Shown here piece after piece: positions 36,406 to 52,114 of a stretch of 64,000 bases of DNA (the stretch's first letter is position 1; every line of letters starts with the position of its first letter). Source of the stretch: Legionella donaldsonii (GTDB lineage Bacteria > Pseudomonadota > Gammaproteobacteria > Legionellales > Legionellaceae); the NCBI RefSeq assembly GCF_900452385.1, contig NZ_UGOA01000001.1:419501-483500 (forward strand). The letters run 5' to 3'. The position numbers and the translations under genes were made by a program. The notes under the pieces are model-generated. The model saw nothing but the letters and a program-made list of their open reading frames with translations. It had not been told where the DNA came from and made no database searches.

Positions 36406-36601
36406 GCTTTTTGGGTATCAATTTTTATTTCTTCATCGCCTTTGATTACCGCATTAATGCTCGTTGTATTAATAATGAATTCCTTTTAGGAGTTCCATTC
36501 AGAAAATCTTTCTCTTTATATAAATTAAATAAAAAGTAATAATCTTAATCAATAAGATTAATAAATGATCTTTTGTGCTAATTATTAGAGGAAGTCCCCT
36601 G

Positions 36602-37408
36602 ATGAATAAACAACAGATATTGCTTGCAGAACAACCGGCAATTGATTTAATCGAACCAATCAGAAATCTTGGTGCGGGTATAACTGAGCTTGATTTGGCT
36701 GAAAACAAACTCGGATCCAAAAGCACAGAAGAAATTATTCAGGTTTTAGCGGCCATTCCTGATAGGATAACGTCACTCAATTTGTCTTGTAATGGTTTTG
36801 GTGAGAAGAGCATCGATGAAATCATTCAAATTTTATCGGCTATTCCCAAGACTGTAAGACATCTGGACTTTGGTGGAAATTTTTTTGACGAGCTAGAAAA
36901 AGGCGCTCTAGCGAGGATTCTTGCAGCGCTACCCCATACAGTCTCTTCGCTCTCATTAGTTGGGAATACTTTTCCCCAAGACGGTATGGAGTTAGCTCAA
37001 GCCTTTGCATGTCTCGGACCAAACCTCTTAACGCTGGATCTTTACTTCACAGCGCTGGCCAGGCTCTCAACAGAGCACTTAAAGCTATTAAAAAATTCGT
37101 TACCTTACGTGCAAATCATCTATTTAGAGTATGATGAGATGGTGACGATGGGGCCGGAAAAAGTGAGAATTTTAAATGAGGCTTTTCCCAACGCTGAAGA
37201 GATTATTGTGCTTGACGGTACTGCGGAAACAGCTGCTCTCGATGTGATCGGAAGAGCCAATTCGCTTAAAAAACTGGGGTTCAAAGTAAACGTACCGTCG
37301 CTTGTAAATCAGTGTGTGTTCTTTATAAATAGAGACGCTCCGAATCATGAGTTAGCTTCTCTTCCGGTAGAATTGCAGGAAAAGGTTAATATCCTCCCAA
37401 AATGCTGA
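36602..37408 (+). CDS. LRR protein, paralogue 1 of 3
   Basis: This is a 268-residue protein from ATG at 36602, with GAGGAAG upstream; an open extension to 36575 lacks a site. Four to five LRRs (ITELDLAENKLGSKSTEE, ITSLNLSCNGFGEKSIDE) occupy residues 28-150. A less regular alpha/beta part and a conserved tail follow: FFINRDAPNHELASLP then ELQEKVN. The tail's LP-x-EL-x-x-x-V resembles the first turn of an F-box. Two paralogues lie downstream on the other strand. It is a likely Dot/Icm effector or host-interaction protein. Confidence 0.85.
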   Translation: MNKQQILLAEQPAIDLIEPIRNLGAGITELDLAENKLGSKSTEEIIQVLAAIPDRITSLNLSCNGFGEKSIDEIIQILSAIPKTVRHLDFGGNFFDELEKGALARILAALPHTVSSLSLVGNTFPQDGMELAQAFACLGPNLLTLDLYFTALARLSTEHLKLLKNSLPYVQIIYLEYDEMVTMGPEKVRILNEAFPNAEEIIVLDGTAETAALDVIGRANSLKKLGFKVNVPSLVNQCVFFINRDAPNHELASLPVELQEKVNILPKC

Positions 37409-37409
37409 G

Positions 37410-37446
37410 AAGTACCTTGATTAATAAGTGAAGGTACTTTTATTTA
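37410..37446 (+). terminator. rho-independent terminator
   Basis: AAGTACCTT (37410-37418) pairs with AAGGTACTT (37431-37439), followed by TTATTT, directly after the stop of the plus-strand LRR gene. The remaining 37447-37646 stretch shows no gene. Confidence 0.8.
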
Positions 37447-37646
37447 GAATTGAGCCATTAACAGGGGTTAATAAGGGTAAGAAAAACCATTTAGTTAACA
37501 TTTAGATGGCGCCTTTAATTCAGGCCATATCCCTCCGGGTGCAAAATTTAGCTATATCTATACGAAGCCAGCTACTTATAACTATAAGTGCATTATTCCT
37601 ACCTTGTTAGGGTTTGGATGACAGGAGGGGTTATTGTCAAGTAATA

Positions 37647-37679
37647 GAAAACAGCCTGGCACTCATTCAGGCTGTTTTC
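37647..37679. terminator. bidirectional terminator hairpin
   Basis: GAAAACAGCCTG (37647-37658) and CAGGCTGTTTTC (37668-37679) form a perfect 12-bp stem with T-runs on both strands. It lies 31 bases past the stop of the minus-strand LRR gene. Confidence 0.8.
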
Positions 37680-37710
37680 ATGATTTTTAAAAGTTGCAAA
37701 ATAAGACGAA

Positions 37711-38523
37711 TTAAAATGAATTAACCTTTTCCTGTAATTCTGTCGGAAGAGAAGCTAACTCATGATTCGGAGTGTCTCTATTTATAAAGAACGCACACTG
37801 ATTCAGGAGTGAGGGTACCACTGATTTAATCTCTTGTTTGCGAAGGAAGTTAGCCAGGACCAAATTGAGATCGTTGCTGTCGTTTAATGCGACGCCCTCC
37901 TTAATAAAAATAATATTCTCACGGGCAACGTTCGGGAAAATATCAAACAAGGCCGCTAACTTTTGTTCTGAAATGCTTGATACTTCATCATAAGATAAAT
38001 AAATTTTGCGCAAATGAGGTAAGGAGTTTTTTAACTTAATTAAGCTTTTTAAAGATAAGCCACCTAACAGGGTTTCCGTTAAATCCATCGTTATTATGTT
38101 GGGAGAAAGGCCGGTGAAGGCTTCAGCCAGTTCGTCAGCTTCGCTTAGCCCAAAAGATTGTCGACTCAGGATGAGCTCACTTAGACCGTCTGGTATAGCC
38201 GCGAAAGCCCTTTTTAAAACGTTGCCTGGTAGTATATCCAGAAGATTGTAGCTTAAATCCAGGGTAGTTATCGTTTTGGGAATGGATGACAATATTTCGA
38301 TTAAATGGTCGCCATTGCGATAATTAAGATGGTTGCTCGCCAAGCTAAGTGTAGTTACCCATGGTGGAATGGTTTTTAATACCTGAGTTACTTTGTCAAT
38401 GTTTTTGAGCCCCAGGTAATTTTCGCTCAAATCAAGTCGCGTAGTGTCTGTGCTAAGGGTTTTTATTGATTTTGCCAAATTAACTTTTGAATCGTTTAGT
38501 TTTAAAGTTGGAAGACCGCTCAT
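37711..38523 (-). CDS. LRR protein, paralogue 2 of 3
   Basis: This is a 270-residue protein with the same plan as its neighbours: LRRs such as TTRLDLSENYLGLKNIDK and VTTLSLASNHLNYRNGDH, then an irregular part, then the tail FFINRDTPNHELASLP with ELQEKVNSF. GAGGAATTTATA precedes ATG at 38523. It is convergent with paralogue 1 and co-oriented with paralogue 3 upstream. It has diverged from both except for the C-terminal tail, whose DNA is nearly identical to that of paralogue 1. Function unknown. Confidence 0.85.
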   Translation of the reverse strand: MSGLPTLKLNDSKVNLAKSIKTLSTDTTRLDLSENYLGLKNIDKVTQVLKTIPPWVTTLSLASNHLNYRNGDHLIEILSSIPKTITTLDLSYNLLDILPGNVLKRAFAAIPDGLSELILSRQSFGLSEADELAEAFTGLSPNIITMDLTETLLGGLSLKSLIKLKNSLPHLRKIYLSYDEVSSISEQKLAALFDIFPNVARENIIFIKEGVALNDSNDLNLVLANFLRKQEIKSVVPSLLNQCAFFINRDTPNHELASLPTELQEKVNSF

Positions 38524-38687
38524 TATAAATTCCTCTGATTATATTCATGCAACAAAGATATTAACTGCTCTTTTTGGTTGCAATTGTTTCATTTAGAATT
38601 TAAATAATACAGAGAAAAATTGTCTTGGCTTGATTCCATTGAGGAATAGATAAAGGACGTTACCCATCCCTGGGTTGAAGCAACACG

Positions 38688-39485
38688 TTAACCACCAATG
38701 GCATTAACCCTTGTCTGTAACTCCTGGGGAAGGCAGTCGAGGTCAGCCATGCCAAAAGAACGTTTTACAAAAAAAGCGCTTAGATTAACGAGTGAAGGGG
38801 GTGGAATATTGAATCCTAATGTTCTAAGTAAATTGGTTTTTACAAACAAATTGGTGGTATCCGAAGGGCTGCCAATAATGTTGATACTTTCAATATTCGG
38901 AAAACTATCATGCAAGAGTCTCACCTTTTGGGGACCCATGGCCACCATCTCATCATAATCTAAAAAGACGGTTTTCAAGTAAGGTAGCGAGTTGTTTAAC
39001 TGCTTTAAGGTTTCTAATGATAATCCAGATAATTCGGTGAAATACAAATCGAGAGTCGAGAGATTAGGGCCTAAGGTTGCAAAAGCCTGGGCTAATTCTT
39101 CTCCGTCTTGAAGAAAGGGATTTCCAACCAATGAGAGGAAATCCAACGTTGGTGGCACTCCGGCAAAAACCTGTTGGAGACCGCCCTGTTCCAATTCACC
39201 CAGTGAGTTTGCATCTAAATAAAGCTGTCTCACCGTACCAGGAATTTTAGCTAAAATTTTTACCAAGTCCTCGACGCTTTTTTTAGAAAGTTGATTGGAA
39301 GATAAATTTAATGAAGTAATCCACTCCGGTATGGATGATAAAATTTGCTCAATTTCTTCTGTACTCTTGAGTCCGAGTTCATTATCACTCAAATCAAGTT
39401 CCGTTGTTTCTCTGGAAATGTTTTGAATTGGCTCGTTTAAGTGAATTGCCGGTTGTTGGTCAATCGATATACGCAAACTGCTCAT
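38688..39485 (-). CDS. LRR protein, paralogue 3 of 3
   Basis: This is a 265-residue protein. Its N-terminal region (IDQQPAIHLNEPIQNISRET, then TELDLSDNELGLKSTEE) is closest to paralogue 1, showing that these two are sister copies. Its tail (FFVKRSFGMADLDCLP with QELQTRVNAIGG) has diverged, unlike the tails of the other two. GAGGAAAAAAT precedes the ATG. The LRR part covers about residues 27-150. Function unknown; an effector-like role is inferred from family and context. Confidence 0.85.
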   Translation of the reverse strand: MSSLRISIDQQPAIHLNEPIQNISRETTELDLSDNELGLKSTEEIEQILSSIPEWITSLNLSSNQLSKKSVEDLVKILAKIPGTVRQLYLDANSLGELEQGGLQQVFAGVPPTLDFLSLVGNPFLQDGEELAQAFATLGPNLSTLDLYFTELSGLSLETLKQLNNSLPYLKTVFLDYDEMVAMGPQKVRLLHDSFPNIESINIIGSPSDTTNLFVKTNLLRTLGFNIPPPSLVNLSAFFVKRSFGMADLDCLPQELQTRVNAIGG

Positions 39486-40659: not shown

Positions 40660-40764
40660 TTATTTAGTGCTGGTATAGGCTGGGCATGATGGGCAAAAGA
40701 GACCACAACCTGAAACGAGGGCAGTAGAGCCAACGATTGCTACTAAAAATAGTATTGTTTTCAT
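40660..40764 (-). CDS. micro-lipoprotein, array copy 1
   Basis: This encodes 34 residues: a hydrophobic signal, the lipobox LVSGC with lipidation expected at the Cys, then the short mature part CGLFCPSCPAYTSTK with three cysteines. TAATAAGGAAATGTC precedes the ATG. It is the last gene of five head-to-tail copies with a 117-bp period. Function unknown. Position 5 is Leu, as in copy 3. Confidence 0.75.
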   Translation of the reverse strand: MKTILFLVAIVGSTALVSGCGLFCPSCPAYTSTK

Positions 40765-40776
40765 GACATTTCCTTA

Positions 40777-40881
40777 TTATTTAGTGCTCGTGTAGGCTGG
40801 GCATGATGGACAAAAGAGACCACAACCTGAAACCAGGGCAGTAGAGCCAACGATTGCTACTAAAAATACTATTGTTTTCAT
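40777..40881 (-). CDS. micro-lipoprotein, array copy 2
   Basis: This encodes a 34-residue lipoprotein identical in plan to its neighbours (MKTIVFLVAIVGSTAL, lipobox SGC, CPSCPAYTSTK). AAGGAAATGTC precedes the ATG. It differs from copy 1 at position 5 (Val for Leu), and the pattern of silent changes pairs it with copy 4. Confidence 0.75.
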   Translation of the reverse strand: MKTIVFLVAIVGSTALVSGCGLFCPSCPAYTSTK

Positions 40882-40893
40882 GACATTTCCTTA

Positions 40894-40998
40894 TTATTTG
40901 GTGCTCGTGTAGGCTGGGCATGCTGGGCAAAAGAGACCACAACCTGAAACGAGGGCAGTAGAGCCAACGATTGCTACTAAAAATAGTATTGTTTTCAT
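40894..40998 (-). CDS. micro-lipoprotein, array copy 3
   Basis: This encodes the same 34-residue lipoprotein, with Leu at position 5 and CPACPAY in place of CPSCPAY. It has the same AAGGAAATGTC ribosome site. It pairs with copy 1 in its silent differences. Confidence 0.75.
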   Translation of the reverse strand: MKTILFLVAIVGSTALVSGCGLFCPACPAYTSTK

Positions 40999-41010
40999 GA
41001 CATTTCCTTA

Positions 41011-41115
41011 TTATTTGGTGCTCGTGTAGGCTGGGCATGATGGGCAAAAGAGACCACAACCTGAAACCAGGGCAGTAGAGCCAACGATTGCTACTAAAAA
41101 TACTATTGTTTTCAT
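41011..41115 (-). CDS. micro-lipoprotein, array copy 4
   Basis: This encodes the same 34-residue lipoprotein, with Val at position 5 and an intact lipobox and Cys-rich tail. It has the same ribosome site and 117-bp spacing, and pairs with copy 2 in its silent differences. Confidence 0.75.
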   Translation of the reverse strand: MKTIVFLVAIVGSTALVSGCGLFCPSCPAYTSTK

Positions 41116-41127
41116 GACATTTCCTTA

Positions 41128-41232
41128 TTATTTAGTGCTCGTGTAGGCTGGGCATGATGGACAAAAGAGACCACAACCTGAAACCAGGGCAGTAGAACCG
41201 ACGATTGCTACTAAAAAGATGATTGTTTTCAT
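41128..41232 (-). CDS. micro-lipoprotein, array copy 5 (promoter-proximal)
   Basis: This encodes the same 34-residue lipoprotein, with Ile at positions 4-5 and several silent changes. Its leader differs (AAGGATGCTAATAA before the ATG), so it marks the upstream end of the array. The following 269 bases (41233-41501) are AT-rich near the array and should hold the promoter; no further gene is seen there. Confidence 0.75.
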   Translation of the reverse strand: MKTIIFLVAIVGSTALVSGCGLFCPSCPAYTSTK

Positions 41233-41843: not shown

Positions 41844-41868
41844 CAACACCGAGTTAAGCCCGGTGTTG
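41844..41868 (-). terminator. arginine operon terminator candidate
   Basis: CAACACCG (41844-41851) and CGGTGTTG (41861-41868) form a perfect 8-bp stem about 40 bases past the carB-argF stop, with GATGTCTTT after it on the minus strand. A second small hairpin (TCTACAT/ATGTAGA, 41886-41902) lies between it and the stop. Confidence 0.55.
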
Positions 41869-41909: not shown

Positions 41910-44900
41910 TTATGCGCAATACACATGTAAAAAAAGCAGCAATGCTTTTTGCACATGCAAGCGATTTTCGCTTTGGGTAAACAAGGCGGCTGCAGGTTCG
42001 TCTGGCAGGGTTACAGAGACTTCTTTACCACGAGCCATCGGCATACAATGCATAAAAATAGCTTCTGGTTTGGCATGAGCCATGAGTTGTTCATTCACCT
42101 GAAAATCAGTAAATGAAGTCTCGTCGGTTTCTTGCTCAAATCCCATACTTGTCCACACATCGGTGTAAACGGCGTGAGCGTCACGAACTGCTGTTTCCGG
42201 TGTTGAATGACTGTGAATCATTCCAGGTGCTGCCTCCATGCTCTTGGCAAGAAGCACCTCATTAGGTTGATTGGCTGGAGGACAGCAATAGTTTATTGTT
42301 ATGCCGAGTTGGGGTGCCATTAATAACAGACTATGAAGAATATTATTACCATCACCAATATAGGCCAACGTTAAACCGGCCAGGGTATTGAAATATTCCT
42401 GTAGGGTCAGTAAATCAGCAAGGATCTGGCAAGGATGATACAAGGCGGATAATCCATTGATAAGGGGGACATTGGCGTAAGTCGCCATTTCTTCCAAACC
42501 TTGATCATCATGGGTTCGCACCATAATGAAATCGCAATAACCGTTTAATACTCGGACCAGGTCCCGTGGTTCTTCCGATTTTCGGGTCGTGCTGACACTT
42601 TCTACAGCTGTACCCCCCAGACTTTGCATGGCAAGAGAGAAACTTAAGCGGGTCCGGAAAGAGGGTTTTTCAAAAATCATCGCCAGATTCTTATGCAACA
42701 AGACATTAGAATAATTTTCTGGTTTCTCTTTCACTAGTTTGGCGAGTGTCAAGATGGCCAGGATATCCTGGTTGTTGAGTTCCATCCCTGTTAAAACATG
42801 CCTGGTTTTCGAAGGATGCCTGATTTGCTGATAGAGTTTTTGCAACGGTTTGACAAAAGGTTCTTCTGCACGGTTGTGGCAAAGGCTTTGTACCATCATT
42901 GCAGCGGCTTCATAAGTGGATGCGTAGGGAATATGGTGTTGCAGGGCAAACGATAAATAATCCAGATGAGCGTCAACCACCAGGATTAGATCAGGATTCT
43001 TGCCTGACTTGAGTTCGTCGATAAGCGTAAATCCTGCGTTTGCCAGGGTTATCAACAATGGATCATTTTTAGCAAAACCAGAAGTAAAAACAACCTTGAC
43101 GTTTTGCTCATCGCAGTGATTACCTGCAGCAATCTGTGCTTTTAAGTAAGCTTCATGAGGTGTCAAACCGATACCCATGACTTCGCCAGTACCCTTCATT
43201 TCCGGGCTAAGGAATGGGGTTGACGTTGAAAATTTGCGGAAAGGTAAGACGGCTTCTTTCACACAATAATAGGGTAAGGTGACGGGTGTTAAACAGCGTT
43301 GTTCTTTAAGTGAAATGCCCAGCATGCAATTGACTGCAATTTCTATTAAAGGAATACCTGTTGCTTTGCAGATAAAAGGAGTGGTTCTTGATGCTCTGGG
43401 ATTGACTTCAATCAAAAATACCTCAGACCCTTTTACTGCAAATTGCACATTCATAAGACCTTTCAGTTTTAAGGCACGCGCCAGAATTTTCGTTTGTTTA
43501 TGAAGAAGATTAGTGAGAGCCAAAGGAAGTTTATAAGGGGGCGTTATACATGCTGAATCACCCGAATGAACACCCACTGCTTCGATGTGTTCGAGGACTG
43601 TGGGAATAAAGATATCGTCGCCATCCGATACAGCGTCAATATCGACCTCAATCGCACCCGTAAGAAACTCCTCCAGTAAAACAGCGTGTGATGTCGTTTT
43701 AAAGAGCGTTTTAAGCTTGGCAACCAGGCTCTCTTTATTGGCCACAATTTCCATACCACGGCCACCCAAGACAAAAGAGGGTCGAATAATCAGGGGAAAA
43801 CCAAGCGTTTCTAAAGCCTGATCGAGTTCATCAAGATGGGTAATCGCCCGATTTTTAGGTTGTTTTAAGCCTAAATGGACGATTAAATCCCGGAATTTAT
43901 CCCTGTCTTCGGTGATGTTGACCAGTTCAGCAGTTAATCCTAGCAAAGGAACGCCATCCTGATGGAGCCTGTCTACCAGATTTAACGGCGTTTGTCCGCC
44001 AAATTGCAGAACGACGGCTGTCGGTTTTTCATGCTCAATCACATCGCGTACTTTTTCATAGGTTAGTGGCAGAAAATAAAGTTTGTCAGCAACATCATAA
44101 TCAGTAGACACGGTTTCCGGATTGCAATTAACCATGATGGTTTCAAAGCCTGCCTTGGCAAATGCCTGCATGGCTTTGACGCAGACATAATCAAATTCGA
44201 TGCCTTGTCCGATACGATTGGGACCACTGCCAATAAGCATAATCTTGGTTGTCGTCCCGGGCTTCGATTCGCAATACTGTTGGTAGGTGCTGTACAGATA
44301 GGCAGTGGCTGTTCGAAATTCACCGGCACAGCTATCGACACATTTATAGACTGGTTGTATCCCAAGTTCTTGCCGGTAAGATCGCACCTCTGCTTCTGTG
44401 CTATGGATAAGTTTGGCGAGCCGTTGATCAGAAAAACCATGTTTTTTCAGAGTTAACAAGGTGGTTTGATCGAGATCATACAACGATTGGCCGCCAAGGT
44501 TTTGTTCCAGGGTAACGATTGTTTTAATTTGGTGTAAAAACCAGGGATCAATAAACGAAGCAGCATGCACTTCTTCAACGCTAAAGCCGCGACGAAAACT
44601 TTCCGCAAGACACCAGAGATGCGTACTGGTATGTCGTTTGAGTAACACTTTTAACGCATCATCATCTAATTCATGTAACGAATCGAAACCCGACGCATTA
44701 ATTTCCAGACTTAAGATGGCCTGTTGCAAACTTTCCGCGAAAGTACTACCAATCGCCATCACTTCTCCCACAGAGCGCATTTGTGGGCCGCGAGCCAGGT
44801 CTTGCGCGTTAAATTTCTCATCATGAAAGCGAGGTATTTTGACTACGGTGTAGTCAATGCTTGGTTCAAAAGAAGCGGGTAAGATGCCGCCGGTAATTTC

Positions 44901-45911
44901 GTTTGGTAATTCGTCCAGGGTATAACCGACCGCAAGCTTGGCAGCAATTTTGGCAATGGGAAAACCAGTTGCTTTTGAAACCAGCGCGGAAGAGCGAGAG
45001 ACCCGCGGGTTCATTTCGATGACGACCATCCTGCCATTTTGGGGATTAAGAGCGAATTGAACATTTGAACCTCCGGTGTCAACACCAACCGCACGCAGTA
45101 CGGCAAAAGCTGCGTCACGCATGGCTTGATATTCATCATCGGTAAGCGTTTGGATGGGGGCGACGGTGATCGAGTCACCCGTGTGAATTCCCAAGGGGTC
45201 AAAATTTTCAACACCACAGACTACAATGCAATTATCCTTTTTATCGCGTACCACTTCTAATTCAAATTCTTTCCAACCGATAAGCGCTTCATCGATGGAA
45301 ATTTCCTGGCAACCTGGTTGGGAAAAAGCGTGTTTGAACGCCGCTATGGCTTCTTCTTCACTATGTACAACGGCTGCTCCGGCACCACCCAGGGTGAAGG
45401 AGGAGCGGACGATGAGAGGTAAGCCCAAATTCTGCATGATTTGTTTAGCACTATCCAGGCTAGTAGCGGAGTAACTTTTAGGAACATTTAAACCAATCTC
45501 TTTCATTTTCTCATGAAACAAGGTTCTGTCTTCGGCAATCGTGATTGCGTTAATGGATGCCCCAATTAATTCAACCTGATATTGGGCTAACATACCTTCT
45601 TTATGCAGCGCTAAAGCGCAATTAAGAGAGGTTTGCCCGCCGAGGGTAGCAATAAGGGCATCCGGGCGTTCTTTGGCAATAATTGCGCTCACTGAAGCAG
45701 TCGTAATGGGTTCAATATACGTCGCGTCGGCTAAATCAGGATCGGTCATAATAGTAGCTGGATTCGAATTAACGAGAATGACTCGATAACTTTCTTCACG
45801 CAGGGCTTTTAAGGCTTGGGTACCTGAATAATCAAATTCACAGGCTTGGCCAATATTGATTGGGCCGGAGCCGATCACCAAAATGCTTTTAATGTTAGTG
45901 TTTTTTGGCAT
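41910..45911 (-). CDS. carB-argF: fused carbamoyl-phosphate synthase large subunit / ornithine carbamoyltransferase
   Basis: This is one open frame of 1333 residues. Residues 1 to about 1033 are CarB: N-terminal VIGSGPINIGQACEFDYSG, two ATP-grasp halves (LGGAGAAVV; second half LIGSGPNRIGQGIEFDYVC, LGGRGMEIV) and a shortened C-terminal MGS-like domain. Residues about 1034-1333 are a complete ornithine carbamoyltransferase: FEKPSFRTR (carbamoyl phosphate), ALYHPCQ, the ornithine loop DVWTSMG and the catalytic Cys in HCMPMARG. CarB (with CarA) makes carbamoyl phosphate and ArgF uses it to form citrulline. There is no stop, frameshift or internal ribosome site at the junction (near 42812). The gene overlaps carA by 17 bases and is the last gene of the arginine unit. 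Confidence 0.95.
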   Translation of the reverse strand: MPKNTNIKSILVIGSGPINIGQACEFDYSGTQALKALREESYRVILVNSNPATIMTDPDLADATYIEPITTASVSAIIAKERPDALIATLGGQTSLNCALALHKEGMLAQYQVELIGASINAITIAEDRTLFHEKMKEIGLNVPKSYSATSLDSAKQIMQNLGLPLIVRSSFTLGGAGAAVVHSEEEAIAAFKHAFSQPGCQEISIDEALIGWKEFELEVVRDKKDNCIVVCGVENFDPLGIHTGDSITVAPIQTLTDDEYQAMRDAAFAVLRAVGVDTGGSNVQFALNPQNGRMVVIEMNPRVSRSSALVSKATGFPIAKIAAKLAVGYTLDELPNEITGGILPASFEPSIDYTVVKIPRFHDEKFNAQDLARGPQMRSVGEVMAIGSTFAESLQQAILSLEINASGFDSLHELDDDALKVLLKRHTSTHLWCLAESFRRGFSVEEVHAASFIDPWFLHQIKTIVTLEQNLGGQSLYDLDQTTLLTLKKHGFSDQRLAKLIHSTEAEVRSYRQELGIQPVYKCVDSCAGEFRTATAYLYSTYQQYCESKPGTTTKIMLIGSGPNRIGQGIEFDYVCVKAMQAFAKAGFETIMVNCNPETVSTDYDVADKLYFLPLTYEKVRDVIEHEKPTAVVLQFGGQTPLNLVDRLHQDGVPLLGLTAELVNITEDRDKFRDLIVHLGLKQPKNRAITHLDELDQALETLGFPLIIRPSFVLGGRGMEIVANKESLVAKLKTLFKTTSHAVLLEEFLTGAIEVDIDAVSDGDDIFIPTVLEHIEAVGVHSGDSACITPPYKLPLALTNLLHKQTKILARALKLKGLMNVQFAVKGSEVFLIEVNPRASRTTPFICKATGIPLIEIAVNCMLGISLKEQRCLTPVTLPYYCVKEAVLPFRKFSTSTPFLSPEMKGTGEVMGIGLTPHEAYLKAQIAAGNHCDEQNVKVVFTSGFAKNDPLLITLANAGFTLIDELKSGKNPDLILVVDAHLDYLSFALQHHIPYASTYEAAAMMVQSLCHNRAEEPFVKPLQKLYQQIRHPSKTRHVLTGMELNNQDILAILTLAKLVKEKPENYSNVLLHKNLAMIFEKPSFRTRLSFSLAMQSLGGTAVESVSTTRKSEEPRDLVRVLNGYCDFIMVRTHDDQGLEEMATYANVPLINGLSALYHPCQILADLLTLQEYFNTLAGLTLAYIGDGNNILHSLLLMAPQLGITINYCCPPANQPNEVLLAKSMEAAPGMIHSHSTPETAVRDAHAVYTDVWTSMGFEQETDETSFTDFQVNEQLMAHAKPEAIFMHCMPMARGKEVSVTLPDEPAAALFTQSENRLHVQKALLLFLHVYCA

Positions 45912-47067
45912 ACTGCACCTCGTGAAAAAACTGCTGGAACAGGATCATGAGTTCGTTTGGTCCTGGATTCGCTTCAGGATGTCCTTGAAAAGAAAAGGCG
46001 GGGGCATTGCGATGGGCAAGCCCGGCAATTGTTCCATCAAACAAGGAAATATGAGTAGTAATTAGATGCTCGGGTAATGAGTGCTCATCGACGACAAAAC
46101 CGTGGTTCTGACTGCTAATAAAGACAGTGCCGGTTTTACAGCATTTAATGGGGTGATTGGCACCATGATGGCCAAACTTCATTTTCCTTGTCTTTGCACC
46201 GGCTGCCAGCGCTAAAATCTGATGGCCTAGGCAAATACCAAAGATGGGGATTTGTTGCTCTAATAATTGAGAGGCCAGGTGAATGACTGACTCACAACTT
46301 TCCGGATCGCCTGGTCCATTAGAGAGTAATACACCGTCAGGAGAAAAGCGTGTTAATTCGCTAAAACTAATCGTATCGGGTACTACTGAAATTTTGATAG
46401 GGTAAGTTGCCAGGGTTTTTAAAATGGCTGTCTTCACGCCACAATCAATAACGACAATATGCGCTAACGCATCGATGGGATCAGCATAGAGATACGCTTT
46501 TTTGGTCGAAACCAGGGTTGCCAGATTACTCCCTTCCATATGCGCTAACGCATCGATGGGATCAGCATAGAGATACGCTTTTTTGGTCGAAACCAGGGTT
46601 GCCAGATTACTCCCTTCCATGGCTGGCGCACTTTGTAGCATCGATAGCGCCTGGTCAGGCGTGATGGAATCGACGGTCACTATACAACCATTTTGACTGC
46701 CTTGTTCGCGCAAATGCAGGGTGAGTGCGCGGGTATCTATCTCTGTCAAGGCAGCAATATGATGTTTCAGAAGAAAATTCTCCAGGCTATCTTGTGCGCG
46801 CCAGTTACTATAATGAGGTGAATAGTCTCTGAACACGGCTGCAGCGGCATGGATTTTTTCTGATTCATGATCGGCTTGATTAACACCGACATTGCCGAGG
46901 TGGGGTGTCGTAAAATTAATAATTTGGCCAAAATAGGACGGATCGGTCAAAATTTCCTGATAGCCTGTTTGTGAGGTATTAAAGACCATCTCTCCCAAGG
47001 CGTGGGTTTTTGCACCAATCGCTTTCCCTTGAAAGAGAGTGCCATCAGCCAAGATGAGGAAAGCCAT
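45895..47067 (-). CDS. carA: carbamoyl-phosphate synthase small subunit (with internal duplication)
   Basis: This is a 390-residue glutaminase subunit. ATG at 47067 has AAGGAG upstream and gives the standard [18 protein letters not shown] start. The C-terminal class I glutaminase domain has the catalytic Cys in [12 protein letters not shown] and the His in [11 protein letters not shown]. Between the N-terminal domain and the glutaminase domain, a 27-residue segment ([20 protein letters not shown] and PIDALAH) occurs twice in tandem. Without the extra copy the protein would be 363 residues, close to the usual CarA. The gene overlaps argH by 23 bases and carB-argF by 17, indicating tight coupling. 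Confidence 0.95.
46457..46618 (-). repeat. exact 81-bp tandem duplication inside carA
   Basis: 46457-46537 and 46538-46618 are identical, and the identity continues two bases further. The length is a multiple of three, so the frame is kept and 27 residues are added. Confidence 0.95.
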
Positions 47068-48301
47068 TTTCTGTCTCCTTAAGAAGCTCGGAAAGCGAGC
47101 AATTTTTTTCAACGGCTTCGCTTACCCAAAGACCGACTTGATGGTGTGCATCCCTAAATGGCATTCCTTGTAAAACCAGGGACTCCAGGATCGCTGTTGC
47201 ATCCAAATAACCACTGGTTGCTTTCTTATGCATTAACTCGGTATTGAAGGTGAGGCTTTGCAGAAAAGGGGAAATAATTTGCAGGCAAGCAGTCAGTGTA
47301 TTGACCGTATCAAATAAACTTTCTTTGTCTTCCTGCATGTCTTTGTTGTAAGCAAGCGGCAAGGCTTTCATCACCGTCAAGATACCGGTTAAATGACCAA
47401 AGACCCGCCCGCTTTTGCCGCGAATTAATTCTAGCACGTCAGGATTTTTCTTATTGGGCATTAGCGACGAGCCGGTCGAAAAGGCATCATCAAGGGTAAT
47501 AAAATTGAATTCCTGGGTTGCCCAAAGAATAAGATCTTCTGCCAAACGTGATAAATGCATCATGATAAGAGCAGCAATAGAGCAAAACTCAATGATAAAG
47601 TCGCGATCGCTGACTGCATCCAGTGTATTACTAATCACCCCCTTAAAGCCCAGTTTTTCGGCGACCCACTGTCTATCCAAAGGCAGATTACTCCCTGCGA
47701 GGGCACCAGCACCAAGGGGCGAAAAATTCATTCGTTCATGCCAATCATGCATGCGGCTCAGGTCACGGCTGAACATGGCATCAAAGGCCGCAAAATAGTG
47801 CCCTAAATAAATAGGCTGAGCCTGTTGCAGATGAGTGTATCCAGGCATCTTGGTATTAGCATGCCGGGTGGCCAAATCCTGCAAAACTTCCTTGAGTGTT
47901 TGCAAGAGGCTGCTTATCTGTGCACCGGCTTCCCTGGTATACAGTCTCAGATCGAGAGCGACCTGATCATTACGGCTGCGGCCAGTATGTAATTTCTTAC
48001 CAAGATCGCCTGTTTTTTGAATGAGCAACTGTTCAACAAACATGTGAATGTCTTCACAGTTTTCATCAAGAACATGTTGTCCTTTGGTTATTTCCAACTC
48101 AATTTCGGCAAGTGCTTTATTAATAGACTGTGCTTCATCATGGCTTAAAAGACCCTGACGTGCCAGCATGCTGGCATGCGCCTGACTGCCAGCAATGTCA
48201 TGACGGTAAAGGATCTGATCAAAAGCCAGTGACGCATTAAATTTCACCACACTTGGATCAAGCGGCTTTTTAAATCGGCCGCCCCAGGTTTTATTCGTCA
48301 T
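47045..48301 (-). CDS. argH: argininosuccinate lyase
   Basis: This is a 418-residue fumarase-superfamily enzyme that splits argininosuccinate to arginine and fumarate. The signature is [13 protein letters not shown]; other family blocks are [19 protein letters not shown] and [21 protein letters not shown] at 48301 overlaps the argG stop as ATGA, better than the in-frame ATG at 48310. It is about 40 residues shorter at the C-terminus than most ArgH proteins (about 460), because the frame ends inside the overlap with carA. The active-site regions are all present. Confidence 0.95.
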
Positions 48302-49509
48302 ACTTGCCACCCCTTATGAACCATGCCGTATACTTTTGCTGACAAAGAGAAAAGATTGATAAACCCTTCCGCATCTTTTTGATTGTAAACATTATCCTCC
48401 TCAAAGGTAGCGAGAGCAGGATTATGTAAACTGTATTCAGATTGCATACCGCAAGGAATGAGATTGCCTTTAAACAGTTTTAACTTGACTGTGCCGGTGA
48501 TATGTTTCTGCGTCACTGCAATCAAAGCGTCCAGGGCTTCTTTCGCTTGAGAAAACCATCGTCCCTCGTAAACAAGATTGGCATAGCTTTGTTGTAGAGA
48601 TTGCTTCAAATGGAGCGTGGCTCGATCAAGGCATAGGCTTTCCAACATCTTATGCGCTTTATAAAGCACTGCGGCAGCCGGTGCTTCATAGACTCCCCTG
48701 ATTTTCATCCCTACCAGCCGATTTTCAACGATATCAGCCACACCGATGCCATGGGCTCCTGCCCGCTGATTCAGTTCTGTTAATAAAGCGACTGGATCCA
48801 TGGCTTTATTATTCAAAGCCACAGGGACACCTTGTTCGAAATCGATAGTCATCAGTTCAGGCGTATCAGGTGTCTGTTCAAGTGTCGCGGTCATTAGCAA
48901 TAAATCGTCGGGTTGCCCCTGACTGGGATCTTCCAGAACACCGCCTTCATGGGAGATATACCAAATATTATGATCGCGAGAATAAGGCGCCTTTGGTGTT
49001 ACCGGGACATCAATACCATGTGCTTTGGCATAATCGATTGCTTCCTGGCGTGACTTAATTTCCCAGGATCGCCAGGGGGCAATAATTTGCAATTGAGGAG
49101 CCAGTGCTTTCACGGTGTACTCGAAACGAACTTGATCATTGCCTTTGCCAGTTGCGCCATGGGCAATCGCATCAGCGTTTTCTTGCAAAGCAATTTCAAC
49201 CAGTTTTTGTGCAATTAAAGGTCTTGAGATCGTTCCTAAAATATATTGCTCTTCATACAACGCGCCAGCCTTCACCAGTTGCCACAGGTAATTGGTGACA
49301 AACTCTTCCTGTACATTGACCACATAAGCGTTGGTTGCGCCACTTTTAATGGCTTTCTGCTTAATGGCTTGCAAATCTTCTTGTTGGCCAAGATCACAAA
49401 TGACTGCAATCACTTCAGCCTGGTAGTTTTCTTTCAGCCAGGGGATCATGACAGAGGTATCGAGGCCTCCTGAATAAGCTAAGGCAATTTTTTTAATGGT
49501 TGTGGTCAT
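48298..49509 (-). CDS. argG: argininosuccinate synthase
   Basis: This is a 403-residue enzyme joining citrulline and aspartate with ATP. The N-terminal PP-loop is [20 protein letters not shown]. Further family motifs are [14 protein letters not shown] and [28 protein letters not shown] precedes the ATG. It is the first biosynthetic gene of the unit, nine bases after the ABC ATPase gene, and takes the citrulline made by the CarB-ArgF protein. Confidence 0.98.
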
Positions 49510-49518
49510 TCGTGTCTC

Positions 49519-50175
49519 CTAATAGTATTTCTTTAAGTCGTGAACAGGGTTGGTTAATTCCTGGGGTTTAACATCAGCTACCAATTGACCGCCTTTGAGA
49601 ACGACCAGGCGATCACTCATTTTGGTGAGAAAATCCAAATCATGCGAGGCAATCACCATGGTAACCCCCATGGATTTAACGGAATGCAGTAAGCTAACAA
49701 CGTCTTCAATGGTTGCCAGATCCAGGCCGGAAGTTGGTTCATCACAAAGTAATAAGTTGGGTTGCATCATCAGACTGCGAGCCAGGGCTACGCGTTGTTT
49801 TTGTCCCCCGGAGAGTTGATGAGGGTAAGACGCTGTTTTGTCTGCTATGCCAAGTGTATTTAACAGGGCTAGTGCTTCCTTGTCGTGCTGACTTGCCTTA
49901 TTTTGCAGTTTGGGAGCGTAAGTTAAGTTTTCTAACACCGTCATATGAGGAAACAGCTGGAAGTCTTGAAACATAAATCCGCTTTTACCTGAGAAGTCGA
50001 TAGTTCCTGAATCAAGGACTTCCAATTTTTGTATACAACGCAGCAGCGTCGATTTTCCTCCACCCGAAGGACCAGCCAACCCAATAATCTGATGGGCAGC
50101 AATACTCAAATTCAGCTGATCTAATACAGGGGTAGAGCCAAAATTTTTGCAGGCATTATTGATGTACAGCATCAT
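49519..50175 (-). CDS. polar amino-acid ABC transporter, ATP-binding subunit
   Basis: This is a 218-residue ABC ATPase: Walker A GLAGPSGGGKSTLLRC, signature LSGGQKQRVALARSL, Walker B LLLCDEPTSGLD, and the switch His in IASHDLDF. It is of the GlnQ/ArtP/HisP class. It overlaps the permease gene by 20 bases. Location next to argG and opposite argR suggests uptake of arginine or a related amino acid, but substrate choice cannot be read from an ATPase. Confidence 0.95.
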   Translation of the reverse strand: MMLYINNACKNFGSTPVLDQLNLSIAAHQIIGLAGPSGGGKSTLLRCIQKLEVLDSGTIDFSGKSGFMFQDFQLFPHMTVLENLTYAPKLQNKASQHDKEALALLNTLGIADKTASYPHQLSGGQKQRVALARSLMMQPNLLLCDEPTSGLDLATIEDVVSLLHSVKSMGVTMVIASHDLDFLTKMSDRLVVLKGGQLVADVKPQELTNPVHDLKKYY

Positions 50176-50803
50176 GCCCTCCTTGTTCGATTTTTTTGCC
50201 TAAATATTCAATGAGTAAAACCAGACCGTAGTAGTAACAACCAGCAATACACAACGGTAAAAAATAGGTAAACTGTTCGGCAGCAATGGATTGTGCTTTG
50301 CGCATCAGATCCATACCACCAATAGTGGAGATCAAAGCGGTCTCTTTAAGAAGCGCGATCATTTCATTAATGAGGGCTGGCAAAATATTCTTGATGACTT
50401 GCGGTAAAATAATATCTTTCCATAAATAAAAGGTTGGAATTTGTAATGTTTTTGCTGCCTCGAATTGCCCCTTAGGCAAATTTTCTATTCCGGATCGCAG
50501 AATTTCAGCAATATAAGCAGAGCTATTAAGACCGAAGGTCAGTATTCCAGCAACCAGGATATCGAGTCGCAAACCGAGCAACCCAGGTACGGCAAAATAG
50601 ATGAAGCTTAATTGTAGAATTAATGGTGTTCCTCTTATTATTGAAACAAAACGATTAATCAGTAATTTCGCCATCCCGTTATAACGCAAAATGGCAAGAA
50701 TTGTCCCCAGCAGGATGCCTATGAGCATCCCGCCTGCCAGGAGTTCTAACGTAAGTACAGTGCCTTGACCGATAAAGAGGAGATTTTGTTTTAACTCGTC
50801 CAT
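50156..50803 (-). CDS. polar amino-acid ABC transporter, permease
   Basis: This is a 215-residue inner-membrane permease with about five helices. The family segments FVSIIRGTPLILQLSFIYFA and SAYIAEILRSGIENLPKGQF are typical of His/Gln/Arg-type permeases, and the second contains the coupling loop to the ATPase. It overlaps both flanking transporter genes. A single permease gene implies a homodimer, unlike the two-permease E. coli Art and His systems. Confidence 0.95.
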   Translation of the reverse strand: MDELKQNLLFIGQGTVLTLELLAGGMLIGILLGTILAILRYNGMAKLLINRFVSIIRGTPLILQLSFIYFAVPGLLGLRLDILVAGILTFGLNSSAYIAEILRSGIENLPKGQFEAAKTLQIPTFYLWKDIILPQVIKNILPALINEMIALLKETALISTIGGMDLMRKAQSIAAEQFTYFLPLCIAGCYYYGLVLLIEYLGKKIEQGGHDAVHQ

Positions 50804-51534
50804 TTGCCACCCTCCAACCAGATTTTTTGAAGTTTGGCGATTTCCCCTTTGGTTTTTAACGTATTGAGGGCTCGATTAACCTGTGCTTTCAATAAGGAAT
50901 TCTTTTTGAAGACCAACCCGTAACCATCGGTTGCTTTAGCAATAATGGTGTAGTTTAAGCCGGGATTTTTTTTGCTGAAGATGGCTCCCTGAGCACCATC
51001 GACAAGAACGACATCCACATGGCCGGCTTTTAGTGCTTCTATTGCCTGGTTGTTATTATCCATTGCCACAATATTTCCTTGGGGAAACTGTTTTTTCAAC
51101 CAAATTTCCATCGTGCTGCCTAGTTGGCAAGCTAATTTTTTTCCTGCCAGTTGTGAAGGGTTATTGATGGGGTCTGTTTGATTAAACACCGCTGCCATTC
51201 CCTCAAAATAGTAGGGTGTACTAAAATCAAAATTCTTTTTCCGATCTTCAGTGATGGTAATCGTTGAGATGGCAATGTCAGCTTGTCCTGCACTTAGCGC
51301 TGGTAAGATAGAGCTAAATTGCATATTGTCAAAAACGGCTTTTTTGCCTAATTCTTTAGCAACAAGCTTTGCCAGATCAATATCGAACCCCTTAATTTCA
51401 CCTTGCTCTTGATATTCAAAAGGTGGATATTCTGCGGAGGTGATAAAATGGATTTCATCGATCTCATTTTCGTTTCCACATCCAGAAAGAAAAAGAATTG
51501 ATGCACTTAACAGGCAAGGTATTAGTTTTCTCAT
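50791..51534 (-). CDS. amino-acid-binding lipoprotein of ABC transporter
   Basis: This is a 247-residue solute-binding protein of the ArtJ/HisJ/GlnH family, with a signal ending in the lipobox ILFLSGC. Conserved parts are SAEYPPFEYQEQGEIKGFDI, ALSAGQADIAISTITIT, and the domain-closing VVLVDGAQGAIF. It is lipid-anchored in the periplasm and delivers the ligand to the permease. It is the first gene of the arginine unit; its start is only 121 bases from the argR ATG. Arginine is the likely ligand from context. Confidence 0.93.
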   Translation of the reverse strand: MRKLIPCLLSASILFLSGCGNENEIDEIHFITSAEYPPFEYQEQGEIKGFDIDLAKLVAKELGKKAVFDNMQFSSILPALSAGQADIAISTITITEDRKKNFDFSTPYYFEGMAAVFNQTDPINNPSQLAGKKLACQLGSTMEIWLKKQFPQGNIVAMDNNNQAIEALKAGHVDVVLVDGAQGAIFSKKNPGLNYTIIAKATDGYGLVFKKNSLLKAQVNRALNTLKTKGEIAKLQKIWLEGGKWTS

Positions 51535-51541
51535 GATAGTT

Positions 51542-51621
51542 ATATATCCAAAATATATCCATTTTTTGACTATATTTGATTTTGCCTTGTGATGTCAACC
51601 ATTAATGAATATAATTTCTAT
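51542..51621. promoter_or_regulatory. divergent argR / arginine operon control region with ARG-box candidates
   Basis: Two direct ATATATCCA repeats, 11 bp apart, lie at 51542-51550 and 51553-51561, just before the transporter gene. AATGAATATAATTTCTAT (51604-51621) matches the ArgR consensus (TGAAT-4-ATTCA) with two mismatches in the second half. This placement would allow ArgR to control both directions. The sites are predicted only. Confidence 0.4.
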
Positions 51622-51655
51622 TTTTATGATTCTGCATTCATTTTGGGGGCGAGAA

Positions 51656-52114
51656 ATGTCACATGATAATCTGCTTGACGGCCACATATTGAGTATCGTG
51701 CAAATACAAGAGATTGCTGAGCAAAGTGATTTGCAGCAGGCGTTGAAAGAAAGGGGTTATGATATCCCGCAAGCGACCTTGTCCCGCCGACTTAAAAAAT
51801 TGAAAATTGCTAAAGTGGCAGGCATTTATCGGGTCGTTGATTTTAATCCGCCCAATCTACCTTTGGTTTTAAATGCACAGGTATCAGAGTATGGTTTGGT
51901 TGTTTTACATACCCAGCCAGGCCATGCGAATAGCCTTGCTTTGTTTATTGATAAAAAATATGTCGCTTTTTACCCGCAACAAGCCAATAGCTCAGGGATT
52001 CTAGGTACTATCGCGGGAGATGATACGGTGCTTCTTATTGTCAAAAGCAAAGTGGATTTGGAGCAGGTCATCCAAATCCTGCAGGCAGAGTTTCCCTATC
52101 TGAAAATTTCTTGA
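51656..52114 (+). CDS. argR: arginine repressor ArgR
   Basis: This is a 152-residue ArgR: an N-terminal winged helix (residues 10-65, IAEQSDLQQALKERGYDIPQ, ATLSRRLKKL) and a C-terminal arginine-binding/hexamer domain (QPGHANSLALFIDK, ILGTIAGDDTVLLIV). The GTIAGDDT motif contacts arginine. ATG at 51656 follows GGGGGCGAGAA; the frame extends back 51 bases across a predicted ARG box. It is divergent from the transporter-argGH-carA-carB/argF unit, its probable main target. In L. pneumophila, ArgR-controlled genes are known to respond inside the host vacuole. Confidence 0.96.
   Translation: MSHDNLLDGHILSIVQIQEIAEQSDLQQALKERGYDIPQATLSRRLKKLKIAKVAGIYRVVDFNPPNLPLVLNAQVSEYGLVVLHTQPGHANSLALFIDKKYVAFYPQQANSSGILGTIAGDDTVLLIVKSKVDLEQVIQILQAEFPYLKIS

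What the first reader, a model, noticed from the sequence alone, without database searches (positions are those of the whole stretch)
41910..45911. CarB and ornithine carbamoyltransferase fused in one 1333-residue protein
A full CarB and a full OTC, both with catalytic motifs intact, share one uninterrupted frame. Carbamoyl phosphate is labile, and channelling from CPS to a transcarbamylase is known in other forms, for example the eukaryotic CAD protein, which joins CPS to aspartate transcarbamylase. Here CPS is joined to ornithine transcarbamylase and sits in an arginine operon, suggesting a dedicated citrulline-making machine. I know of no widely described CarB-ArgF fusion, but I could not search.
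Basis: partly seen in the sequence, partly recalled or inferred. Interest (0 to 1): 0.78.

Follow-up and report, generated by a model that had tools for sequence, protein, structure and literature searches.

The report
Two arginine enzymes fused in Legionella
A Legionella-like bacterium makes one large protein that joins the enzyme producing unstable carbamoyl phosphate to the enzyme that uses it for arginine, and this joint protein is conserved in several relatives and has lost most of the region through which pyrimidines would normally switch it off.

Summary
Window 41910-45911 (-) is one 1333-aa frame: CarB residues 1-930, a shrunken allosteric (MGS) domain 931-1029, then a complete ornithine transcarbamylase (OTC) from 1037. 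It ends an artIQP-argG-argH-carA operon, opposite argR. It is not an artefact: 13 of 143 Legionellaceae genomes, and one genome of another gammaproteobacterial order, join CarB to OTC in frame; the species pairs tested show purifying selection. The genome also has a separate canonical carA, carB and pyrB, but no other OTC.

Correction: the CarB is not full. About 40 of 138 MGS residues are gone, with most of the nucleotide (UMP/IMP) site; presumed ornithine contacts remain. Canonical Legionellaceae CarB shows the reverse (23 of 23 keep the UMP site and have Leu for Glu892). I read this as two dedicated enzymes: a UMP-regulated pyrimidine CPS, and a UMP-blind, perhaps ornithine-responsive CPS-OTC making citrulline.

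The 11 fused CarBs treed form one clade; the fused OTCs do not (AU p 0.02), so separations or re-joinings occurred. Other Legionellaceae fuse ArgH to OTC. Channelling is plausible but untested. Nine searches of open-access papers showed no CPS-OTC fusion.

The parts
41910..45911 (-). CarB-OTC fusion gene, 1333 aa
43122..45911 (-). CPS large-subunit part, residues 1-930 (two ATP-grasp halves and oligomerisation domain)
42825..43121 (-). shrunken MGS/allosteric domain, residues 931-1029, ending in the CarB C-terminal helix KPLQKLYQQ
   Evidence: no PF02142 hit
42804..42824 (-). junction, residues 1030-1036
41928..42803 (-). ornithine transcarbamylase part, residues 1037-1328
45895..47067 (-). 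carA, glutaminase subunit, 390 aa from the ATG used in relatives; holds a perfect 81-bp in-frame tandem duplication at 46457-46620
47045..48310 (-). argH
48298..49509 (-). argG
49519..50175 (-). ABC transporter ATPase (artP-like)
50156..50803 (-). ABC transporter permease (artQ-like)
50791..51534 (-). amino-acid binding protein (artI-like; best NCBIfam model lysine/arginine/ornithine, below its cut-off)
51605..52114 (+). argR, divergent (several orthologues start at residue 18, nt 51656)
51569..51598 (-). sigma-70-like promoter before artI (11 of 12)
   Evidence: consensus match only, such sites are not more frequent than in shuffles
51606..51640 (+). two ARG-box-like sites 21 bp apart, 2 and 1 mismatches (consensus recalled)
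   Evidence: pattern not enriched in the window (47 found, 66 expected)
41844..41868 (-). hairpin after the fusion stop, weak terminator
   Evidence: number of such sites not above shuffles

Best explanation
An arginine-dedicated carbamoyl-phosphate synthase whose large subunit carries its own ornithine transcarbamylase. With CarA (next gene upstream) it would use glutamine, bicarbonate and 2 ATP to make carbamoyl phosphate, and the OTC on the same chain would join it to ornithine to give citrulline; ArgG and ArgH from the same operon would finish arginine. In this strain ornithine is probably imported, perhaps by the operon's ABC transporter, because argC is missing. Loss of most of the nucleotide site should free the enzyme from UMP inhibition, while the kept ornithine-contact residues may still sense the co-substrate; the separate canonical CarA, CarB and PyrB would serve pyrimidines. 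Shown: gene structure, domain content, residue conservation, conservation across species, purifying selection in the pairs tested, operon, genome context. Inferred: both activities, UMP insensitivity, ornithine sensing, division of labour, ornithine import, and that being on one chain helps transfer of carbamoyl phosphate.
For: Single frame and over-cut-off CarB and OTC models. Catalytic positions kept. dN/dS 0.06-0.18 in all three segments for three species pairs. Same order artIQP-argG-argH-carA-fusion with argR divergent in six further loci (L035-L040). A second carB, a second carA and a pyrB in the genome, no other OTC. argC absent from the own genome at E<=1e-10; L. [quoted passage not shown] Lys993 missing and Thr974/Thr977 replaced in 6 of 6 fused CarBs tabulated, while Glu783, Asp791, Glu892, Tyr1040 and Thr/Ser1042 are kept in 6 of 6; Legionellaceae canonical CarBs have Leu892 and keep Lys954, Thr974, Thr977, Lys993 and Asn1015 in 23 of 23. 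Thr977/Lys993 for UMP and Thr1042 for ornithine are from PMC6245113 (section read). The 11 fused CarBs in the tree form one clade, 100/100.
Against: Most Legionellaceae with this OTC do not join it to CarB (44 of 57), so fusion is not required. The window's own CarA has a 27-residue tandem duplication that L. feeleii lacks, which might harm the small subunit in this strain. Against general ornithine import: G009, G010 and G016, all with the joined genes, carry argC over the cut-off (3 of 22 genus genomes); G010 has no artIQP between argR and argG, and the operons of G199 and G820 have no transporter genes. The roles of Glu783, Asp791, Glu892, Tyr1040, Lys954, Thr974, Asn1015 and Thr1017 are recalled, not taken from a call. 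Canonical CarBs have Leu892 also in Legionellaceae without a fusion, so that change does not track the fusion today, and several CarBs of other phyla also lack Glu892 (11 of 18).
Confidence: 0.72

Rival explanations
1. The fusion works only as two enzymes on one string: it fixes a 1:1 dose and co-expression, without preferential transfer of carbamoyl phosphate. Joining arose by loss of the stop between adjacent genes and is close to neutral.
For: OTC is also joined to ArgH in other Legionellaceae and to an ArgD-like aminotransferase in one Bacillota genome, pairs for which carbamoyl-phosphate channelling cannot be the reason. The fused state is patchy: on the OTC tree it needs at least 4 changes. 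In five Bacillota arg operons carB lies 24-30 nt before argF as separate genes, so the neighbours needed for such joining exist.
Against: Fused CarBs form one deep clade that keeps the joint frame across 3 Legionellaceae genera and another order, with strong purifying selection on both parts in the genus.
Confidence: 0.35
2. A polyprotein: one chain is made and cut into CarB and OTC.
For: The junction is short, and the least conserved stretch (mini-MGS) lies just before it.
Against: I know of no cleavage site or protease; the C-terminal CarB helix runs almost directly into OTC in the forms aligned.
Confidence: 0.04
3. Sequencing or assembly error removed a stop codon.
For: None found. L. tunisiensis has a broken frame, but neighbouring genes of that assembly are broken too.
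Against: Intact joint frames in feeleii, massiliensis, nautarum, drozanskii, maceachernii, G001, G845, G820 and G199.
Confidence: 0.005
4. History: CarA plus CarB-OTC spread as a module by horizontal transfer, rather than being ancestral to Legionellaceae and lost in most lines.
For: The only fusion found outside the family (G199) has the order argR|carA-carB.OTC-argG-argH, as does the Legionellaceae genome G820, and their CarBs are sisters (100/99).
Against: The OTC part of the genus fusions sits among Legionella OTCs; the one unfused OTC of the genus (G005) has an N-terminus like the fusion's joint (1 of 2000 shuffles as high, best of 16 tested), which hints at separation; Leu892 in every Legionellaceae canonical CarB examined would fit an ancient second CPS.
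Confidence: 0.4

Closest known systems
CAD (animals) and the fungal pyrimidine-specific CPS-ATCase proteins
   Same: Carbamoyl-phosphate synthase and a transcarbamylase on one chain (fusion of CPS II with ATCase and DHO: PMC6022934, passages).
   Different: Here the transcarbamylase is OTC, the pathway is arginine, the glutaminase CarA is a separate gene, and there is no dihydroorotase domain.
E. coli CarAB (bacterial CPS II)
   Same: Same two-subunit plan; aligned over 1-928 with E. coli CarB (1136.9 bits).
   Different: About 40 MGS residues with most of the nucleotide site are missing, and OTC is attached.
Fungal arginine-specific CPS
   Same: A second CPS for arginine besides a pyrimidine one (PMC6022934, passages).
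   Different: Described there as a heterodimer or as fused glutaminase-synthase; no OTC mentioned in the passages seen.
Carbamate-kinase-like CPS with OTC in Pyrococcus furiosus; CPS1 with OTC in mitochondria
   Same: Channelling or physical association between a carbamoyl-phosphate source and OTC (PMC6022934; PMC8517447; passages).
   Different: Separate proteins in non-covalent complexes; the Pyrococcus synthase has an amino-acid-kinase fold.
ArgH(A) of marine gammaproteobacteria
   Same: Fusion of two arginine-pathway enzymes in gammaproteobacteria (PMC1382215, passages).
   Different: ArgH with N-acetylglutamate synthase, not CPS with OTC; comparable rather with the ArgH-OTC fusion seen here.

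Membership tests
CPSase large subunit (CarB, TIGR01369) | Model score over curated cut-off | tested here: met
   1303.8 vs 1027 bits
CPSase large subunit (CarB, TIGR01369) | Both ATP-grasp halves with active-site residues | tested here: met
   19 of 20 recalled positions identical to E. coli
CPSase large subunit (CarB, TIGR01369) | C-terminal MGS allosteric domain | tested here: not met
   No PF02142 hit in the window protein (E<=1e-3) or in three other fusions (E<=1e-5); hit in the own canonical CarB. A shortened remnant is visible by alignment
Ornithine carbamoyltransferase (TIGR00658) | Model score over curated cut-off | tested here: met
   286.4 vs 280.85 bits, a narrow pass; N-acetylornithine, putrescine and aspartate models below cut-off
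Ornithine carbamoyltransferase (TIGR00658) | Carbamoyl-phosphate and ornithine motifs | tested here: met
   13 of 15 recalled positions match E. coli ArgF; T to F in STRTR and L to M in HCL differ
Ornithine carbamoyltransferase (TIGR00658) | Trimer with active sites at subunit interfaces | not testable with these tools
   Structure prediction off
CAD-type multifunctional enzyme | CPS and transcarbamylase in one chain | tested here: met
CAD-type multifunctional enzyme | Aspartate transcarbamylase and dihydroorotase domains | tested here: not met
CAD-type multifunctional enzyme | Preferential transfer of carbamoyl phosphate | not testable with these tools
   needs enzyme assays

The most novel reading that the evidence does not exclude
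A bacterial arginine counterpart of CAD: an ancient single-chain CPS-OTC that channels carbamoyl phosphate to citrulline, has lost the UMP site and kept the ornithine site, paired with a canonical CPS that kept the UMP site and lost ornithine sensing; later, OTC was repeatedly separated from CarB and re-joined to other arginine enzymes such as ArgH.
Probability: 0.35. Interest if true: 0.75.

Novelty: new variant of a known kind. Interest (0 to 1): 0.62.

Why it matters
It would be a CPS-transcarbamylase fusion on the arginine side of metabolism and would give a natural test of whether covalent joining is selected for channelling of a labile intermediate. The apparently reciprocal loss of regulatory residues in the two CPS enzymes of one family suggests how the shared E. 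coli-type control could be split by evolution, and both halves can be tested with purified proteins.

Tried and rejected
Artefact: rejected by independent assemblies. Fusion as a recent duplicate of the housekeeping carB: rejected, the own canonical CarB groups with Legionella canonical CarBs, the fused one with the other fusions. CarB-OTC fusions in Bacillota: open-frame lengths of about 1400 aa looked like fusions in five genomes, but reading the DNA showed separate carB and argF with real stops between. Because that column can mislead, I read the DNA of the CarB-OTC loci counted (10 in the genus, G845, G820, G846); of the 7 ArgH-OTC-like frames I read only G904 and G860, besides four named loci that may be among the rest. 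G183, G166 and G295 (class search) also proved not to be fusions. The apparent linker match in L. quateirensis and relatives turned out to be the end of ArgH in an ArgH-OTC fusion. In one search four rows (L027, L032, L176, L179) had the wrong frame picked; redone. In one search the row meant as the own second CarA was a neighbouring gene and is not used. In one search most loci were read on the wrong strand; redone.

Rows dropped: one search took only matches covering enough of CarB or OTC (61 and 79 rows). The CarB trees left out 8 and 15 of 61 for being partial, long-branched or redundant; one search added 2. The OTC trees used 53 of 79 and 34 of 79 plus 6 new. The residue table holds 6 of the 11 fusions of the CarB tree. 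The search with A1 kept the best 80 of 344 relatives, of which I examined 35 for gene order. Class, phylum and Bacillota searches score at most 3 candidates a genome and list a capped number of rows, so distant fusions that align in two pieces could be missed.
Full report
What is there. The ORF at 41910-45911 (-) is a single frame of 1333 codons, 146.4 kDa. Pfam and NCBIfam split it into a CPS large subunit and an OTC, both above curated cut-offs, OTC narrowly. The OTC domain begins at residue 1037, nt 42803. Between the CarB core (ends about residue 930) and OTC lie about 100 residues. Aligned with E. coli CarB (from NC_000913.3) they are a reduced MGS domain: first strand and helix kept, about 29-31 central residues and smaller pieces missing, C-terminal part with the terminal LQxLY helix kept; OTC follows within a few residues. 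E. coli has 138 residues there (936-1073), the fusion about 99.

Operon and genome. On the minus strand the order is artI-artQ-artP-argG-argH-carA-[carB-OTC], with overlaps or short gaps throughout, and argR divergent. The own genome (3.6 Mb, 3 contigs) has one further CarB (canonical, with MGS), one further CarA and one further carbamoyltransferase, which scores as aspartate carbamoyltransferase (353.8 vs cut-off 263). There is no other OTC. ArgC was not found in it at E<=1e-10; of the 22 genus genomes only G009, G010 and G016 have ArgC over the cut-off, and in G009 argC lies apart, beside argJ- and argB-like frames (names of the last two from sequence look only). So in this strain ornithine probably comes from outside, as in L. 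pneumophila, which lacks many early arginine genes and grows on ornithine or citrulline in place of arginine (PMC3920079, passages). This cannot be general: G010 lacks artIQP at this place, and the G199 and G820 operons have no transporter.

Distribution. Named hosts from GTDB genomes (read): L. feeleii (97% identical in the CarB part, 96% in OTC; closest), L. tunisiensis (frame broken in an assembly with other broken genes), L. massiliensis, L. nautarum, L. drozanskii, L. maceachernii, two Tatlockia MAGs and one Legionellaceae MAG (nzgw584), the last three cut by contig ends. In the genus 10 of 22 held genomes have CarB joined to OTC (7 whole, 2 cut by contig ends, 1 with a broken frame upstream of an intact joint), one has OTC alone (G005) and 11 have none at E<=1e-30. 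In the family 57 of 143 genomes have this OTC (E<=1e-40): 13 with CarB joined (10 in the genus, 2 in g13, 1 in g480), 7 with open frames of 735-784 aa that fit ArgH-OTC, 37 with open frames of 301-399 aa, taken as alone. The contig of G846 (g13) is the nzgw584 record, reverse-complemented. ArgH-OTC was read as one ORF in L. quateirensis, L. bononiensis, L. maioricensis, an uncultured Legionella, G904 and G860; named and unnamed loci may overlap. Among the rows listed for 369 genomes of the class one more fusion appeared, G199, of another order (confirmed); the only other genome held of that order lacks it. Of 398 genomes drawn from the phylum only the own reached E<=1e-82. Among the rows listed for 398 Bacillota no CarB-OTC fusion was confirmed; five suspicious ones are separate genes. 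Plasmid records held only relatives under 60% identity (62 for CarB, 45 for OTC); I did not read them for fusion.

Selection. dN/dS for CarB / mini-MGS / OTC: window-feeleii 0.07/0.18/0.10; drozanskii-nautarum 0.06/0.07/0.10; G001-maceachernii 0.06/0.13/0.09. Two more distant pairs were near or at saturation of synonymous sites. The whole chain is kept by selection in the genus, the mini-MGS least strictly.

Regulatory sites. In six fused CarBs tabulated (window, massiliensis, drozanskii, maceachernii, nzgw584, G199), Lys993 is in the deletion in 6 of 6, Thr974 and Thr977 are replaced in 6 of 6 (in the alignments; gaps them in 5), Lys954 in 5 of 6; the placing of 1015 and 1017 depends on the alignment. 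Glu783, Asp791, Glu892, Tyr1040 and Thr/Ser1042 are kept in 6 of 6. In 23 of 23 Legionellaceae canonical CarBs the nucleotide-site residues are kept (one Ala at 1017) but residue 892 is Leu; the canonical CarBs of nzgw584's genome and of a Legionellales MAG have Leu as well. Of the 13 other gamma- and betaproteobacterial CarBs 12 have Glu892 and one Gln; of 18 from other groups 7 have Glu. The importance of Thr977 and Lys993 for UMP and Thr1042 for ornithine is taken from PMC6245113 (section 9 read); the roles of the other positions are recalled. I infer that the fused CPS escapes UMP control and may keep ornithine sensing, and that the canonical one may have lost it.

History. Eleven fused CarBs form one clade with full support, separate from canonical gammaproteobacterial CarBs; G199 and G820 are sisters inside it. 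These two also share the order argR|carA-carB.OTC-argG-argH. The OTCs of all Legionella types plus G199 and a few other gammaproteobacteria form a clade apart from other OTCs, but within it the 12 fused ones are not one clade: holding them together costs 40 log-likelihood units, p-AU 0.0195 (the group is defined by the trait, but I had seen the quick tree before testing). Either one old fusion was followed by several losses of the CarB part, or joining was repeated with local OTCs. For separation speaks the N-terminus of the lone OTC of G005, which resembles the fused joint (1 of 2000 shuffles as high; the other 15 sequences tested gave 41 to 1804): weak evidence, the more so as that OTC groups with the ArgH-fused ones (96/88). 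A short OTC remnant lies beside artI and argR in G017.

Literature. Nine searches of the open-access library (listings) and passages of seven papers (one section of PMC6245113) gave no CPS-OTC fusion. Subscription papers and domain databases were not searchable, so priority is not certain; automatic annotations of these public genomes may already name it.

Verdict. Real, conserved, not a chance joining; most likely an arginine-dedicated CPS-OTC enzyme. Channelling is reasonable but unproven. It is a new variant of the known kind of CPS-transcarbamylase fusion.

Noticed in passing
L074, L079, L084, L098 (named Legionella), L214 8118-10310, L215 4663-6879: A different fusion, argininosuccinate lyase joined to OTC in one frame of about 730-775 aa, in other Legionellaceae; both parts are recognised by Pfam in the two tested (L079, L214).
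   Followed up: partly
L227 6151-8379 (G932, Bacillota search): A 742-aa frame joining a class-III aminotransferase (ArgD-like, by its place after argC, argJ and argB-like frames) to OTC: a third partner for OTC.
   Followed up: partly
window 40660-41232 (-): Five head-to-tail copies (117-bp period) of a 34-aa lipoprotein-like ORF, four of them with the same possible ribosome site; L. feeleii has four copies in the same place.
   Followed up: partly
window 46457-46620: Perfect 81-bp tandem duplication inside carA adding 27 residues between its two domains; absent from L. feeleii.
   Followed up: partly
window 36575-39485: Three related proteins of 265-277 aa that look leucine-rich-repeat-like by eye (no family search run); two have close counterparts in L. 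feeleii.
   Followed up: no
L052 7804-9497: In G017 only a short OTC remnant remains beside artI and argR: a decayed copy of the operon.
   Followed up: partly
L075-L078, L080-L083, L085, L087, L088, L092, L094, L095: In 14 loci of the L. bozemanae/longbeachae group OTC sits with artI, and no argG, argH or argR was found in the stretch held. The four read (L075, L077, L092, L095) have an N-terminal extension of about 60 residues, as do some OTCs that follow argH.
   Followed up: no
L220-L224: In five Bacillota arg operons carB and argF are neighbours in the same frame, 24-30 nt apart, with stops between: a likely starting point for such fusions.
   Followed up: partly
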